Source: Candidatus Atopostipes pullistercoris (GTDB lineage Bacteria > Bacillota > Bacilli > Lactobacillales > Carnobacteriaceae_A). Taken from it: 40,419 nucleotides of DNA. A model generated the notes under the pieces. That model was not told the origin of the DNA and made no database searches. It worked only from the letters and a program-made list of their open reading frames with translations. A program made the translations under genes and the position numbers. This document shows positions 3,889 through 19,568 of this stretch, piece after piece; position 1 is the stretch's first letter; the number at the start of each line of letters is the position of its first letter. The stretch spans positions 1 to 40,419 of the forward strand of contig DXAZ01000121.1 in assembly GCA_019116785.1 (NCBI GenBank). The letters run 5' to 3'.

Positions 3889-6800
3889 TTATTCTTCAGA
3901 AATATCTTCTTCCGAATTTTCATAAATCATTTCATTGTCTATTCCTACTAATTTAGGAGCCAGATCTGTATATAACTGGATTCCTGTACCTGCTGGAATT
4001 TGTTTACCAATGATAACATTTTCTTTCAAGCCAACTAGATCATCCGATTTTCCACGAATAACTGCATCTGTTAAAACGCGTGTTGTTTCTTGGAAAGATG
4101 CAGCAGATAGGAAACTGTTTGTTTCAAGCGCTGCTTTCGTAATTCCTAATAACACCGGACGAGCTGTTGCTGGTTGTCCACCTGACATTAATGTTTCTGT
4201 TACATGATCTTTGAAATCATGAATATCCATTAATTCGCCTGGTAAGATTTCAGTATCTCCTGGATCAAGGATGCGAATCTTTCGTAACATTTGACGTGCA
4301 ATAACTTCTACGTGCTTGTCTCCGATTTCTACCCCTTGACTGCGGTAAGCATATTGAACTTCTTTTAGGATATATTCTTGAAGTTTTGAAACTCCACTTA
4401 CAGCAAGTAATTCTTTTGGATCAATAGATCCTTCATTAAATGCATCCCCACGTTCAACGGTGTCACCGACATCCACACGCATACGTGCATTTCTTGGCAA
4501 CTTGTAAGAGCGTGTATCTGTAAGACCTTTTATTGTAATTTCTTTTTCATTTTCTTCTGGATTTTCTTCAATAGATTCAACGATACCTGTAACTTCTGAA
4601 ATAGTCGCTTGACCTTTAGGATGGCGTGCTTCAAAGATTTCTTGAACACGAGGTAACCCTTGAGTAATATCGTCCCCTGCAACTCCACCAGTATGGAATG
4701 TACGCATAGTTAATTGAGTTCCTGGTTCACCGATAGATTGAGCAGCAACGATTCCTACTGCTTCTCCTACTTCAACTTCACGTCCTGTCGCTAAGTTTCT
4801 ACCATAACATTTACGGCAGACACCATGGCGAGTGTTACATTTATAGACGGAACGAATAGAGATTTCTTTATATCCTGCACGAACGATATCACGTGCAATA
4901 TCTTCAGTAATCATTTCATTTTCGCCAACAAGAACTTCACCAGTTTCTGGATTTAGTACTGTTTGACGAGAATAACGACCGATAATTCGTTCTTCTAAGG
5001 TTTCAATTTCTTCGTTGCCTTGCTTCAACTCGCGAGCAACAATTCCACCCTCAGTCCCACAATCATCTTCACGGACGATAACATCTTGAGAAACATCGAC
5101 CAAACGACGAGTAAGATATCCAGAGTCTGCGGTCTTCAATGCCGTATCCGTCATTCCTTTACGAGCTCCGTGAGTAGAAATGAACATCTCTAAAACAGAT
5201 AAACCTTCACGGAAGTTTGACGTAATCGGCAACTCCATAATCTTTCCACTTGGGCCCGCAATTAGACCACGCATACCTGCTAATTGGGTAAAGTTTGAAA
5301 TAGAACCACGAGCTCCTGAGTCACTCATCATGTAAATATTGTTTTCACGGTCTACGGAAGTTGCTAGTTCATCTTGAATAACATCTCGAGCTTCTGTCCA
5401 GATATCAATAACATTTTGGTAACGTTCATCTTCTGATATTAACCCTCTTCGATGAGTAGCGTTGATTCGATCAACTTTTGCACTAGCCTCTTCTAAGAGT
5501 TCTTCTTTATCTGCAAGAATAGGAATATCAGCAATTCCCACTGTTATCCCTGATTTAGTTGAATACTCATAACCTAAATTTTTCATGTTATCCAACATTT
5601 CGGATGTTTGAGCAACCTGGAATCGTTTGAAGACTTCAGCAATGACATTTCCTAAGTCTTTTTTCTTAAATGGATCTACTGGTTCTTGATTTTTAATATA
5701 CTCTTTAATATTTGTACCATATGGAACAAAATACTTATCTGGTGTCTGAACTTCTAAATTATTTAAAGTCGGTTCATTCAAATATGGGAATTCTTTCGGC
5801 ATAATATTATTAAAGATTATTTTTCCAACGGTTGTAATTAAATACTTATCTTGTTGTTCTTCAGTAAAGCGTTTATTTGGCAAGTCAACAGTTTGGATCG
5901 CGATACGTGAATGTAAATGAACATATCCTGTTTTGTAAGCTTGGAAAACTTCTTCTGGTGTAGAAAAAGCCATTCCTTCCCCTTCTGCTCCAGCTCTTTC
6001 AAGTGTTAAATAATAGTTTCCTAAAACCATATCTTGAGAAGGTGTTACAACTGGTTTACCATCTTTAGGATTCAAAATATTTTGTGCACCAAGCATTAAG
6101 ATTCTTGCTTCAGCTTTTGCTTCTTCACTTAAAGGAACGTGAACGGCCATTTGATCCCCATCAAAGTCTGCATTATAAGCCTCACAAACTAATGGATGTA
6201 GACGGATTGCTTTTCCATCAATTAATACTGGTTGGAAAGCTTGAATTCCTAAACGGTGAAGTGTCGGTGCTCGGTTTAAAAGGACTGGATGTTCTCGAAT
6301 TACATCTTCCAGTACTTCCCAAATTTCTTCATCCAATTGTTCTACTTTACGTTTTGCGTTCTTAATATTTGTCGCAATTTCACGAGCAACTAGTTCACGC
6401 ATGACGAATGGCTTGAACAATTCAACAGCCATTTGTTTTGGTAACCCACATTCATACATTTTTAATTCAGGTCCTACAACAATAACAGAACGTCCTGAAT
6501 AATCGACACGTTTACCGAGTAAGTTTTGACGGAAACGACCTTGTTTTCCTTTCAACATATGAGAAAGAGATTTTAATGGACGATTTCCTGGTCCAGTTAC
6601 CGGACGACCACGACGACCGTTATCGATTAAGGCATCTACCGCCTCTTGCAGCATACGTTTTTCATTTTGAACGATAATATGTGGTGCATTTAAATCCAAT
6701 AGTCTTTTTAGACGATTATTACGATTGATTACACGACGATATAAATCATTCATATCACTTGTCGCAAAACGGCCACCATCGAGTTGAACCATAGGTCGTA

Positions 6801-7512
6801 ACTCTGGTGGAATAACAGGAAGAACATCCATGACCATCCATTGTAATTCGTTTCCTGACATAGCAAATGAATCCATAATGTCTAATCGACGGATTGCCCG
6901 AGTACGTCTTTGTCCTGTTGCAGTGAGTAAGAATTCTTTAAGTTCTTTAATTTCTGCTTCTAAATCTACATCATCTAATAATAACTTAATGGCTTCTGCT
7001 CCGACTTCAGCACGAAATGCATTGCCATATTCTAGACGAGCATCACGATATTCAAATTCATTTAGTAATTGTTTTTTCTCAAACGGTGTATCACCAGGTT
7101 CGATAACTACATAAGAAGCATAATAAATGATTTCTTCTAAAGAACGCGGACTCATATCTAAAATAAGTCCTAAACGACTTGGGATTCCTTTGAAGTACCA
7201 AATGTGTGTAACAGGTGTAGCTAGTTCAATGTGACCCATACGTTCACGACGAACTTTCGAATTAGTTACTTCTACACCACAACGGTCACAAACAATTCCT
7301 TTATAATGAATACGACGGTATTTCCCACAAGCACATTCATAATCTTTAGTTGGACCAAAAATACGTTCGCAGAACAAACCGTCTCGTTCTGGTTTTAGTG
7401 TACGATAGTTGATGGTTTCTGGTTTTTTGACTTCTCCATATGACCATTCACGGATTTTATCAGGAGAAGCAATAGAAATTTGTACATGATTAAAATTATT
7501 TACGTCAATCAA
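3889..7512 (-). CDS. rpoC: DNA-directed RNA polymerase subunit beta'
   Basis: Catalytic large subunit of RNA polymerase. At 1207 residues it matches Firmicute beta' (about 1200) and lacks the large insertions found in proteobacteria. The N-terminal zinc ribbon has Cys60, Cys62, Cys75 and Cys78. The active-site magnesium loop [12 protein letters not shown] lies at 447-458. The second zinc site is in the [14 protein letters not shown] region, and the trigger loop region ([15 protein letters not shown]-like) is intact. The start is TTG (7510-7512), aligned with the TTG start of B. subtilis rpoC, with GGGAGG upstream. It follows rpoB after 156 nt that hold a structured hairpin. Confidence 0.98.
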
Positions 7513-10600: not shown

Positions 10601-11235
10601 CCAATGAGATCAATTATTTCATCGTCTGATCCAAAACCAAGTGCTCGAATGAAAGTCGTTAAAGGTAATTTACGTGTACGATCAATTCGTACATTTAATA
10701 ATCCTCTTGTATCTGTTTCAAATTCTAACCATGCACCTCGGTTAGGAATCATTACTGCACTAAATCCTTCTCTACCATTCTTTTCAACTTTTGGACTGAA
10801 ATAGACTCCTGGAGAGCGTACTAATTGTGAAACCACTACACGTTCTGATCCATTAATAATAAAAGTTCCTTGCTCTGTCATCAAAGGTAAATCACCAAAG
10901 AAAACTTCTTGCTCTTTTATTTCGCCTGTTTCATTATTTACTAATCGTAGTTTTACATAAACGGGTGTTGAGTAATTTGCATCGTGTTCGCGTGCTTCAT
11001 CAACCGAATATTTTGGTTCGTCAAATGAATAATCCAAAAAATCTAAAGATAAGTTTCCAGAAAAATCATCTATCGGAGAAATATCCTGGAATAATTCTTT
11101 CAAACCATCGTCTAAAAACCACTGATAAGAGTCGGATTGAATCTCAATCAAATTGGGAATTTCCATCACTTCACGAATTCTGGAAAAGCTTCTACGAACT
11201 CGTTTTTTACCATAGTGAACTTCATTACCTCGCAC
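7669..11235 (-). CDS. rpoB: DNA-directed RNA polymerase subunit beta
   Basis: RNA polymerase beta subunit, 1188 residues from the chosen start (B. subtilis 1193). The rifampicin-binding cluster (about residues 466-497: [12 protein letters not shown], then [12 protein letters not shown]) is wild type at the usual resistance positions. The C-terminal part has [12 protein letters not shown] and the conserved block [18 protein letters not shown]. Two GTG codons compete for the start. GTG at 11242-11244 overlaps the GAGAGGTG ribosome binding site. GTG at 11233-11235 lies 6 nt after that site and aligns with the start of other Firmicute RpoB proteins, so it is preferred. It has its own promoter and a leader of about 260 nt with a terminator-like hairpin. 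Confidence 0.97.
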
Positions 11236-11380
11236 TCTATTCACCTCTCATTGATTTCACTGATTGTTAAAACACAGGTAGCTTTTCAGAAAGACAGTCA
11301 ACATTCGAAATGATCATATTACAAATATTACAAAATCATTTCAATTAGTTAACAAATGACTATTTATTCTGATTTTAAGC

Positions 11381-11430
11381 AAAAAAATAACAAAAGAAAT
11401 GTGTATTCATTAAATCCACAATGTCTTTTG
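11381..11430 (-). terminator. Terminator-like hairpin inside the rpoB leader
   Basis: On the minus strand, CAAAAGACATTGTG (11417-11430) pairs with CACATTTCTTTTG (11391-11403) apart from one small internal irregularity, over a 13-nt loop. It is followed at once by TTATTTTTTT (11381-11390). This is intrinsic-terminator layout, yet it sits between the promoter (start near 11497) and the rpoB start codon. Premature termination or attenuation of rpoBC is therefore plausible. No competing antiterminator was identified with confidence. Confidence 0.6.
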
Positions 11431-11503
11431 TTTTCCCCAAAGTGTGTCTGGACAATATTTCAGAACACTTTTACCAATATTTCCAACAATATAGCGTTCA
11501 TAT

Positions 11504-11532
11504 ATTATAGGGCATCATTTTTATAATGTCAA
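11504..11532 (-). promoter_or_regulatory. Perfect consensus sigma-A promoter of rpoB-rpoC
   Basis: TTGACA (11527-11532) and TATAAT (11504-11509) on the minus strand with exactly 17 nt between them: a full-consensus promoter. The predicted start is near 11497. In B. subtilis rpoB is read from the ribosomal protein genes upstream; here those genes are 7 kb away and rpoB carries this strong promoter of its own. The remaining 11533-11755 stretch is AT-rich and shows no convincing promoter for the plus-strand gene at 11756. Confidence 0.9.
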
Positions 11533-11755: not shown

Positions 11756-13294
11756 ATGAATAAGAAAGATGATTCACAACAAATGTCAGGAGCATTAGGG
11801 TGGATAGAAAAAGTCGGAAATAGATTACCTCATCCGGTTGTTTTATTCATTTTATTGGCAACTTTCATTATTCTTTTATCACACATTTTAGCTTCACTCG
11901 GAGTAGAGGTTACCTACTTTAATAGTACAGAACAAGAATATGTGACTGTAGAAGCTATTTCTTTATTAAATGCGACAGGAATTAACCATATCTTTAACTC
12001 AGCTGTTGAAAACTTTACAGGGTTCGCCCCTTTAGGAACCGTTCTTGTGGCGATGTTAGGAGTCGGTGTCGCTGAGTGGACAGGTTTAATTTCTGCATCA
12101 ATGAAAAAGTTACTTTCAAATATTCCAAACGGTCTATTATCTGCTGCAATTGTTTTTGCAGGAATTATGTCTAACATCGCTTCTGATGTTGGTTACGTTG
12201 TTATTGTTCCTTTAGGTGCTATGATATTCGCAGCAGCTGGACGACATCCAATTGCTGGATTGACTGCTGCTTTTGCAGGAGTTTCCGCTGGCTTTTCAGC
12301 GAATTTACTTCCTGGTCCTTTAGACGCATTATTAGTGGGAGTCGCAAATGAATCATTAGCTTCATCAGGAATTCATTATGAAATGTCAATAACAGCAAAT
12401 TGGTACTTTTTAATTGCTTCTACTATTCTTTTGACGATTGTAGGAACCCTTATAACCGACAAAATCATTGAGCCACGACTTGGTGAATATACCGGAAGTT
12501 ATCGTCCAAGTGACGAACCTTTAACAAAGCAAGAATTAAAGGGATTAAAAAATGCGCTAATCGTCCTTGTTATCTATGTAGCGATTATGGCTTACTTGAT
12601 GTTTGGTCCTAACGCTTTATTCCAATCATTTGACGAAACAACTGGCGAACTTTCTTTAAGTACCTTTTTAAGCAGTGGACTTCTTTTCGCATTATTCCTT
12701 TTATTTACTTTGCCCGGTTTAGCTTACGGAGTAACTATAGATAAAATAAAAAATTCTAATGATTTCGTCGAAGGAATGACCGAAGCAATGAAAACAATGG
12801 GTAGTTATATTGTCTTATCTTTTTTTGCTGCTCAATTGATTAATTATTTTGATTATTCAAACATGGGAACCATTCTAGCAACATCTGGAGCAGATTTTTT
12901 AAAATCTATTCATTTAGTCGGTTTGCCCCTTTTACTTGCTTTCATTTTATTAACAGCTTTTATTAATTTATTTATGGGGTCTGCTTCTGCAAAATGGACG
13001 TTATTATCTCCAATCTTTACACCGATGTTTTATGAGTTGAATATAGCACCTGAAGCTACACTCATGGCCTATCGTATTGCAGATTCGACTACTAACATCA
13101 TTTCACCGTTAATGAGCTATTTTGCTATGATTTTAGTCTTTATGAAAAGATACGATGAAGATTCTGGGATTGGTACACTTATTTCAATCATGATTGTTTA
13201 TTCAGGAATCTTTCTTGTAACCTGGACTTTATTATTTTCTATTTGGTATTTACTAGGATGGCCACTTGGACCCGGAGCTCCAATTGTTTTTTAA
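11756..13294 (+). CDS. AbgT-family transporter (p-aminobenzoyl-glutamate transporter family)
   Basis: Integral membrane protein of 512 residues with about a dozen hydrophobic segments. It begins with the family-typical GWIEKVGNRLPHPV sequence near residues 16-29. AbgT members import p-aminobenzoyl-glutamate or export sulfonamide-type antimetabolites, driven by the ion gradient; the substrate here cannot be read from sequence. Asn/Ser-rich re-entrant regions typical of the family are visible, for example SNIASDVGYVVIVPLG near 139-154 and GSASAKWTLLSPIFTPMF further on. ATG with AAGGAGGAAAAT upstream. It is the only plus-strand gene in the first 23 kb and sits between rpoB and ybxB, ancestral neighbours in Bacillus, which suggests later insertion. 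Confidence 0.88.
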   Translation: MNKKDDSQQMSGALGWIEKVGNRLPHPVVLFILLATFIILLSHILASLGVEVTYFNSTEQEYVTVEAISLLNATGINHIFNSAVENFTGFAPLGTVLVAMLGVGVAEWTGLISASMKKLLSNIPNGLLSAAIVFAGIMSNIASDVGYVVIVPLGAMIFAAAGRHPIAGLTAAFAGVSAGFSANLLPGPLDALLVGVANESLASSGIHYEMSITANWYFLIASTILLTIVGTLITDKIIEPRLGEYTGSYRPSDEPLTKQELKGLKNALIVLVIYVAIMAYLMFGPNALFQSFDETTGELSLSTFLSSGLLFALFLLFTLPGLAYGVTIDKIKNSNDFVEGMTEAMKTMGSYIVLSFFAAQLINYFDYSNMGTILATSGADFLKSIHLVGLPLLLAFILLTAFINLFMGSASAKWTLLSPIFTPMFYELNIAPEATLMAYRIADSTTNIISPLMSYFAMILVFMKRYDEDSGIGTLISIMIVYSGIFLVTWTLLFSIWYLLGWPLGPGAPIVF

Positions 13295-18858: not shown

Positions 18859-19368
18859 TTAAGCTGCGTCTTCTTCTTCTTTTTTGTCTGCAACTGCTTT
18901 GAATGCCAAGGCTGTATTTCGAATTGGTGCTTGAAGTACAGATAGTAGCATAGATAGTAATCCTTCGCGATCTGGAAGTTTTGCAACGGCTTCGATTGTT
19001 TCAACCGTAACAACTTCACCTTCCATGTATCCCCCTTTAACTTCAAGGGCTTCTACTTCTTGTGCAAATTCAACCATAATTTTTGCAGGTGCAACTACCT
19101 CTTCTTCACTAAATGCGATAGCAGTTGGTCCAACAAAAACTTCATTTAATTCTTCAATTTCAGCTAATTCTGCTGCTTTGCGTAACATAGTATTTTTAAC
19201 TACACGCATTTCTACACCAGCATCACGCAATTGTTTACGTAGATCTGTAACTTCCGCAACAGTTAATCCACGATAGTTAACAATAACAAAGGCTGCAGAA
19301 TTTTGAAATTTCTCAACTAATTCTTCTACAATTTGTTGCTTTTCTTGTAAAACTTGTTCACGACTCAC
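18859..19368 (-). CDS. rplJ: 50S ribosomal protein L10
   Basis: L10 anchors the L7/L12 dimers to 23S rRNA at the stalk base and represses its own synthesis. The 169-residue product contains [20 protein letters not shown] and KNTMLRKA, and ends with an acidic Lys/Glu tail. Start choice: GTG at 19366-19368 stands 5 nt after GGAGGTGA. In-frame ATGs at 19381-19383 and 19393-19395 lie within or before that site, the second next to the leader terminator, and are rejected. It is preceded by a typical L10 leader. Confidence 0.96.
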
Positions 19369-19404
19369 TAACGTCACCTCCATAAGCTTGTCCATTTTGT
19401 CATT

Positions 19405-19568
19405 AAAAAAACTCCCTTAGTCACCGATGACAGTAAGGGAGTGTTAAATGTTTGGTTATATCGTTTAAATTTTTAAACGTCTTAAACACACATTTTCCTC
19501 GGTATGACATTAAGGCTTGCGCCACATACTGTCTTCGGTAATGCTAGGTATTCAATTCATATAAGAAC
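19405..19568 (-). ncRNA. L10 leader (ribosomal protein autoregulatory leader)
   Basis: Leader RNA of rplJL, matching the Gram-positive L10 leader pattern: ACCGAAGACAG, then GUCAUACCGAGG further on (about 19485-19535 of the minus strand), followed by a terminator. The terminator stem CTCCCTTA (19434-19441) with TAAGGGAG (19412-19419) and seven T (19405-19411) lies about 36 nt before the GTG start. In this known system excess L10 (with L12) binds the leader and favours termination. Confidence 0.88.

What the first reader, a model, noticed from the sequence alone, without database searches (positions are those of the whole stretch)
11381..11532. Perfect-consensus rpoB promoter followed by a terminator-like hairpin in its own leader
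TTGACA-17-TATAAT drives rpoBC, yet 65-115 nt downstream an RNA hairpin with a UUAUUUUUUU tail stands before the start codon. A maximal promoter coupled to an early terminator suggests that RNA polymerase supply is set by attenuation, perhaps autoregulated. I know of no standard leader family for rpoB in this group.
Basis: partly seen in the sequence, partly recalled or inferred. Interest (0 to 1): 0.55.

Follow-up and report, generated by a model that had tools for sequence, protein, structure and literature searches.

The report
Conserved terminator in rpoB leader RNA
The messenger RNA for the core of RNA polymerase starts, in this bacterium and in most sampled relatives of the lactic-acid-bacteria order, with a known but unexplained hairpin (Lacto-rpoB) followed by a built-in stop signal, which suggests that the cell sets its RNA polymerase supply by premature termination.

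Summary
A 12/12 consensus promoter (minus strand, 11532-11504) drives rpoB (GTG 11235), and a hairpin with a U7 tract (11432-11381) stands in its 5' leader. The window is Atopostipes (Carnobacteriaceae).

(1) A leader family is known: the first hairpin (11471-11439) is a diverged homologue of Rfam Lacto-rpoB (RF01709; 29.7 bits against a threshold of 40). A model of hairpin plus terminator matches 206 of 295 genomes of the order, and all 83 hits compared lie 92-158 nt upstream of rpoB. Both helices covary strongly. Rfam's 58-position model stops inside the streptococcal terminator, which it annotates as unpaired. (3) Between terminator and start codon lie direct repeats matching the WalR/VicR box (TGTWAH-N5-TGTWAH: 51 of 113 leaders, shuffles 0.3).

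Attenuation is therefore well supported by comparison but not shown. I found no conserved antiterminator, leader peptide or second promoter. Autoregulation by polymerase is open. WalR is a good but not secure guess: genus g13 has drifted half-sites yet an unchanged WalR recognition helix. No mechanism turned up in 9 paper searches.

The parts
11504..11532 (-). sigma-A-type promoter TTGACA-N17-TATAAT of rpoB; transcription start inferred near 11498
   Evidence: 12/12 match; 1 site in window, shuffle mean 0.06; same hexamers and spacing in A. suicloacalis L018
11439..11471 (-). hairpin P1: stem 11471-11461 / 11450-11439, loop AAAUAUUGUC 11460-11451; homologue of Lacto-rpoB (RF01709 match covers 11478-11424)
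   Evidence: RF01709 29.7 bits, E 0.01, below gathering 40; covariation in 80 leaders, pair next to the closing pair C-G 45 / U-A 35, paired in 80 of 80
11381..11432 (-). intrinsic-terminator-like hairpin T (arms 11432-11424 and 11397-11389) with U7 tract 11387-11381
   Evidence: folds; conserved and covarying over the order; CM R1 match 11379-11475, 74.7 bits (the window is in R1's training set)
11318..11354 (-). direct-repeat array TGTTAA-N5-TGAAAT-N5-TGTAAT-N3-TGTAAT, WalR/VicR-box-like operator inside the transcribed leader
   Evidence: sequence; enrichment and spacing test over 113 leaders; WalR/YycF orthologue in this genome, 417 bits
7669..11235 (-). rpoB coding sequence (GTG start 11235, Shine-Dalgarno GAGAGGTG just upstream)
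3889..7512 (-). large ORF downstream of rpoB, by position and size rpoC (name inferred, not searched)
   Evidence: ORF of 1207 aa
11475..11483 (-). second copy of the loop motif (GAAATATTG) upstream of P1; exact copy in G000, G002 and G003 of Atopostipes, one change in G001
   Evidence: sequence

Best explanation
This is a transcription attenuator that sets the supply of the RNA polymerase beta/beta' subunits. A near-maximal promoter starts a 5' leader; the nascent RNA folds the Lacto-rpoB hairpin P1, with its almost invariant 10-nt loop, and then a U-rich intrinsic terminator T about 118 nt from the start. Part of the polymerases are released there and the rest read on into rpoBC. P1 and T do not compete for bases, so I infer that the switch is not a simple either/or refolding. 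A factor that reads the invariant P1 loop - most likely the elongating polymerase with its Nus factors, or a protein that reports on it - changes the efficiency of T and so keeps polymerase supply in balance. A direct-repeat operator between T and the start codon, probably for the response regulator WalR, adds a second brake by blocking elongation. Shown by sequence: promoter, P1, T, their order, covariation and conservation. Inferred: that T terminates in the cell, that read-through is regulated, what reads P1, and what binds the repeats.
For: All 4 Atopostipes genomes and all 27 family genomes carry promoter, P1 hairpin, terminator and U-tract before rpoB (read by eye; loop diverged in 2 of 27). 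RNAalifold on 80 leaders found exactly P1 and T unprompted. 94.5% of 1039 cells pair against 75.1% in shuffles, covariation score 0.522 against 0.167, no shuffle as high in 500; sliding the partners by 1-3 columns drops pairing to 33-54%. CM R1 (P1+T) matches 206 of 295 genomes of the order, 69 of 74 genera; 83 of 83 hits compared lie 92-158 nt upstream of rpoB on its strand. Streptococcus has a different terminator sequence in the same place; 47 of 47 named leaders (44 of them Streptococcus) carry a terminator (44 by pattern, 3 by eye). No SD-preceded leader ORF is conserved (5 of 27 in f1, 0 of 9 Streptococcus) and no -10 element follows the repeats (4 of 25, shuffle 7.2). TGTWAH-N5-TGTWAH in 51 of 113 leaders, shuffle mean 0.33.
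Against: No transcript data. The terminator stem is AT-rich and energetically ordinary in the single sequence. No conserved antiterminator: in truncated leaders the T 5' arm is paired with mean probability 0.12-0.32 and no common partner, except Streptococcus at 0.53. Family f7, read in 8 leaders, lacks the P1 loop altogether. For WalR: the window's own repeats have one mismatch per N5 pair; TGTWAYN5TGTWAY is hardly or not commoner genome-wide than the reversed pattern (7 v 10 in G002, 7 v 5 in G000, 9 v 12 in G008, 7 v 14 in G036); genus g13 has drifted half-sites (TCTAAY, CTTAAT) but an unchanged WalR recognition region.
Confidence: 0.68

Rival explanations
1. Constitutive partial terminator: T simply trims a strong promoter to a fixed level, as the rplL-rpoB attenuator of E. 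coli is thought to do (recalled), and P1 only protects the 5' end of the RNA or pauses polymerase.
For: No antiterminator or leader peptide is conserved; the terminator is kept while its sequence changes.
Against: The P1 loop is far more conserved than a protective hairpin needs: five loop positions are invariant and others nearly so in 80 leaders.
Confidence: 0.2
2. Classical autogenous control: free beta/beta' or holoenzyme binds the P1 loop, as L10-L12 binds its own leader, and favours termination at T or blocks translation.
For: The element sits almost only before rpoB, one copy per genome in nearly all; the loop is invariant while the stem is free to change.
Against: No binding evidence; copies before other polymerase genes were not looked for by name.
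Confidence: 0.25
3. P1 is a cis-acting antiterminator that modifies the polymerase which made it (as HK022 put or the EAR element do, recalled), so that T is read through by competent elongation complexes only.
For: P1 lies just before a strong U-tract and does not overlap T; its conserved part is a loop, not a switchable stem.
Against: put and EAR were not compared here; P1 is much smaller.
Confidence: 0.2
4. The terminated 118-nt leader is itself a trans-acting small RNA and the gene effect is secondary.
For: Promoter and terminator bracket a structured RNA.
Against: In all 83 hits compared it sits before rpoB, and a conserved repeat array and ribosome site follow it.
Confidence: 0.07
5. The hairpin is a chance AT-rich palindrome.
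For: Energy within the range of shuffles in the single sequence.
Against: Conserved position and covariation over the order.
Confidence: 0.02

Closest known systems
Lacto-rpoB RNA (Rfam RF01709; Weinberg et al. 2010, PMC2864571, one table passage seen)
   Same: Leader of rpoB in Lactobacillales; hairpin with loop AAAUAUUGUC closed by G-C and U-A/C-G
   Different: Scores 29.7 bits, under the threshold of 40; 3' flank not matched; Rfam's model ends inside the streptococcal terminator arm (positions 46-58 shown unpaired) and does not include the terminator or the downstream repeats
rplL-rpoB attenuator of E. coli (recalled)
   Same: Terminator before rpoB that lowers rpoBC against its neighbours
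   Different: E. coli's lies between genes of the rplKAJL-rpoBC operon; here rpoBC has its own promoter and leader
L10 leader (RF00557), present here before the 178-aa ORF at 18859-19395 (rplJ by position; not searched)
   Same: Leader-RNA control of a neighbouring expression-machinery operon
   Different: Different structure and gene; no shared match
WalR/VicR/YycF box (S. aureus WalR motif 5'-TGTHH[N]6WGTNDD-3', PMC10746227; passages and section 8 seen)
   Same: Direct repeats with 11-bp period; sites downstream of the promoter go with repression in S. aureus, whose WalR directly controls rplK, hup, ltaS, prs, dnaA
   Different: rpoB does not occur in that paper's main text; here the array lies in the leader beyond a terminator

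Membership tests
Lacto-rpoB (RF01709) | In the 5' leader of rpoB in Lactobacillales | tested here: met
   rpoB 11235; Atopostipes by contig identity
Lacto-rpoB (RF01709) | Loop AAAUAUUGUC on a stem supported by covariation | tested here: met
   the alignment A2 joins the window with leaders above the threshold (L146 43.6 bits, L176 43.3 bits)
Lacto-rpoB (RF01709) | Score at or above Rfam's gathering threshold (40 bits) | tested here: not met
   29.7 bits; 6 of 60 relatives reach it. So I call it a homologue and variant, not a filed member
Lacto-rpoB (RF01709) | Outer two-pair helix and 3' flank GuuAAAuCA | tested here: not met
   gaps and mismatches in the alignment; the flank is the left terminator arm in Streptococcus
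Transcription attenuator | Intrinsic terminator between promoter and start codon | tested here: met
   sequence and covariation
Transcription attenuator | Conserved alternative antiterminator helix | tested here: not met
   not required for factor-dependent attenuators
Transcription attenuator | Leader peptide | tested here: not met
Transcription attenuator | Condition-dependent read-through | not testable with these tools
   no transcript data
WalR operator | TGTWAH-N5-TGTWAH direct repeat | tested here: inconclusive
   exact in 51 of 113 leaders but with one mismatch in the window itself
WalR operator | WalR present and motif shared with WalR-type targets | tested here: inconclusive
   NF040534 over cut-off in 17 of 17 genomes searched; in G002 the other matches include a PcsB-type M23 hydrolase and a secreted subtilase, but the g13 drift is not matched by WalR
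WalR operator | Binding | not testable with these tools
   needs EMSA or ChIP

The most novel reading that the evidence does not exclude
Across the Lactobacillales, RNA polymerase supply is set by one conserved control module: the Lacto-rpoB loop is read by the polymerase itself (aptamer or cis-acting antiterminator) to tune a terminator in its own leader, and the essential cell-wall regulator WalR (or a related OmpR-type regulator) puts a second brake on the transcript, tying polymerase supply to envelope growth.
Probability: 0.2. Interest if true: 0.85.

Novelty: new variant of a known kind. Interest (0 to 1): 0.6.

Why it matters
How bacteria set the amount of their own RNA polymerase is an old open question. 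Lacto-rpoB was listed in 2010 as a probable cis-regulatory RNA, and the passages I could read give it no mechanism. Showing that it is half of a hairpin-plus-terminator unit, with an operator-like repeat array behind it, turns it into a directly testable attenuator in laboratory strains, and shows that the Rfam model is cut off in the middle of the conserved unit and misses most of the relatives searched.

Tried and rejected
Antiterminator by alternative pairing: truncated-leader partition functions gave no common partner; rejected for all but possibly Streptococcus. Leader-peptide attenuation: no conserved SD-preceded ORF; rejected. Second promoter activated by the repeats: no -10 enrichment (only 25 leaders passed the filter); not supported. 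The loop as a genome-wide motif: the 18-mer is on 72 contigs of genome contigs, of which 47 have rpoB within 900 nt downstream; the other 25 do not and are mostly outside the order. Two of them are Enterococcus places antisense in another ORF, so 1 of the 32 genomes (G236) is a false match; L087 may be cut by its contig end. Change of WalR recognition residues to explain g13: tested and not found, against WalR. Papers: 9 answered searches gave 3 papers naming Lacto-rpoB and none with a mechanism; in the listings and passages I saw, none reports WalR or VicR acting at rpoB. Papers opened by 'find' (passages only): PMC2864571, PMC7724050, PMC6064168, PMC10746227 (also section 8), PMC13236596, PMC6296669, PMC12083536. 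Supplements were not read.

Selection caveats: of the 122 leaders assembled, 93 were taken by rpoB coordinates alone (27 family genomes, 66 others); 22 were taken by RF01709 or the loop pattern and 7 by the terminator pattern. The relaxed loop pattern was widened after seeing diverged loops. The 8 f7 leaders were left out of the alignments and of the repeat test; one search used 113 of the 114 others (L005 dropped, variant loop). A1 has 26 of 27 family leaders (one duplicate core), A2 80 of 99 distinct non-Streptococcus leaders, A3/R1 69 of those 99. The printed outputs were cut, so I give no totals from them. Sequences of one genus are not independent.

Full report
What is there. The window is from Atopostipes (Carnobacteriaceae). 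Its genome shares a genus label with handles whose contig lengths equal those of A. suicloacalis DSM 15692 (62,493 nt) and of an Atopostipes MAG (5,643 nt). rpoB is on the minus strand with GTG at 11235. A perfect promoter occurs 0.06 times on average in shuffles of this window. Taken alone, the hairpin is unexceptional in energy, so conservation has to decide.

The missed first hairpin. An Rfam scan at relaxed threshold matches 11478-11424 to Lacto-rpoB, RF01709, at 29.7 bits (threshold 40, E 0.01). The match holds the stretch UCUGAAAUAUUGUCCAGACA letter for letter. So a leader family is known for rpoB in this order. It was listed in 2010 as RNA 'Y', cis-regulatory 'y', switch 'n' (PMC2864571, one passage; the meaning of the columns is recalled). 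The two other papers that name it only list it as present, in Enterococcus faecium and Streptococcus agalactiae (passages).

Conservation. rpoB was found in 27 of 27 genomes of the family and all 27 leaders were read by eye: each has a promoter, a P1-type hairpin, the arms ACAAAAG (GCAAAAG in 3 of the 27) and CUUUUG, a U-tract and an SD; in 2 the loop has diverged (CACUAUUAUCC, CACUCUUAUCC). With the covariance model R1 (P1 plus T, trained on 69 leaders) 206 of 295 genomes of the order match, in 69 of 74 genera. By comparison RF01709 reached E 0.001 in 16 of 60 relatives and its cut-off in 6. Of the R1 hits, 83 were compared with the rpoB coordinates and all 83 lie 92-158 nt upstream on the same strand. 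In a sample of 348 genomes of the class, 13 match and all are of this order (stricter filters). Among the R1 misses listed are Streptococcus (f4), family f7 and one f9 genome; 69 further misses were not printed.

Structure. RNAalifold on 80 leaders returns P1 and T and nothing else. The second pair of P1 is C-G in 45 and U-A in 35. The T helix goes G-C 54, G-U 17, A-U 7 at one pair and A-U 44, U-A 21 at the next. Over 13 pairs 94.5% of cells are paired (shuffles 75.1%), with 223 cells changed on both sides (84.3), and sliding the partners destroys it. Relatedness inflates such counts, but the changes recur across families. In Streptococcus the terminator has another sequence (AGCAGUUAAAUC...GAUUUAGCUGCUCUUUUUGUG) in the same place, and 47 of 47 named leaders carry a terminator. 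Rfam's model covers the left arm of that terminator (positions 46-58, unpaired in its structure line) and stops. The published element is thus half of a hairpin-plus-terminator unit.

Operator. Between the U-tract and the SD, 51 of 113 leaders hold TGTWAH-N5-TGTWAH (shuffle mean 0.33, maximum 2 in 30 rounds). Spacers 3, 4, 14 and 15 are the only others of 0-15 above background, which fits one array H1-N5-H2-N3-H3-N5-H4. With one mismatch allowed: f1 26 of 27, f2 16 of 16, f3 18 of 20, f4 5 of 9, f5 21 of 30, f6 1 of 1, f8 2 of 2, f9 7 of 8. The window has TGTTAA-N5-TGAAAT-N5-TGTAAT-N3-TGTAAT. The 17-mer is the recalled WalR/YycF consensus; the S. aureus motif in print has the same 11-bp period. 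WalR is encoded in all 17 genomes searched. In A. suicloacalis the pattern has 7 matches, 2 of them in this leader and others before a PcsB-type M23 hydrolase and a secreted subtilase; but the reversed pattern has 10, so the motif is not enriched genome-wide. In genus g13 the half-sites have become TCTAAY or CTTAAT with the 11-nt period kept (read by eye), yet the WalR recognition region does not differ. So an OmpR-type regulator is likely, WalR the best guess, and g13 is a warning. In S. aureus, sites between or downstream of the -35 and -10 elements go with repression (PMC10746227 section 8).

Mechanism. P1 and T do not share bases, no antiterminator is conserved, no leader peptide, and no second promoter was seen. 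The simplest reading is a terminator whose efficiency is set by something that reads the P1 loop on the nascent RNA. For a gene that makes RNA polymerase, the polymerase itself is the natural candidate, but that is inference.

Verdict. Observation confirmed; attenuation strongly supported by comparison; 'no known family' wrong; autoregulation open. What I did not find in print within the searches listed is the terminator as a constant of the Lacto-rpoB leader and the repeat array behind it.

Noticed in passing
L194, L195, L196, L197, L198, L199 (family f7, genus g15, unnamed): rpoB leaders without the Lacto-rpoB loop share another conserved structured RNA (GGAARCTTTTGATRRACG...TTTAAG...CTTAAA...CGGGTGCGGRRGGTTC) just upstream of rpoB; RNAalifold -24.5 kcal/mol on 6 leaders; an Rfam scan to E 0.1 on 3 of these 6 (L194, L195, L197) found only one weak match, below its threshold; exact pattern in 2 of 10 f7 genomes.
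   Followed up: partly
window 19396-19556 (-): L10 leader RF00557 (68.2 bits) upstream of the 178-aa ORF at 18859-19395, by position rplJ; rpoBC is separated from it by several kb of other genes.
   Followed up: no
window 11756-13294 (+): A transporter-like ORF (AbgT-like by eye, not searched) is divergent from rpoB in G000 and G002; in several other leaders of the family an unrelated ORF ending in GYWIL-type residues lies upstream on the rpoB strand (by eye).
   Followed up: no
window 11483-11475 (-): A second copy of the loop motif GAAATATTG upstream of P1, seen only in Atopostipes leaders (G000, G002, G003; one change in G001).
   Followed up: no
genus g13 leaders L187, L189, L192, L213, L215, L216: Repeat array drifted to TCTAAY or CTTAAT with the 11-nt period kept, while the WalR DNA-binding region is unchanged.
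   Followed up: partly
Rfam RF01709, seen in L001 1501-1558: The model ends inside a terminator arm and misses most of the leaders searched; an extended model finds them.
   Followed up: yes
G145 (family f3; its rpoB leader is L180): Two R1 matches in one genome; the second was not looked at.
   Followed up: no
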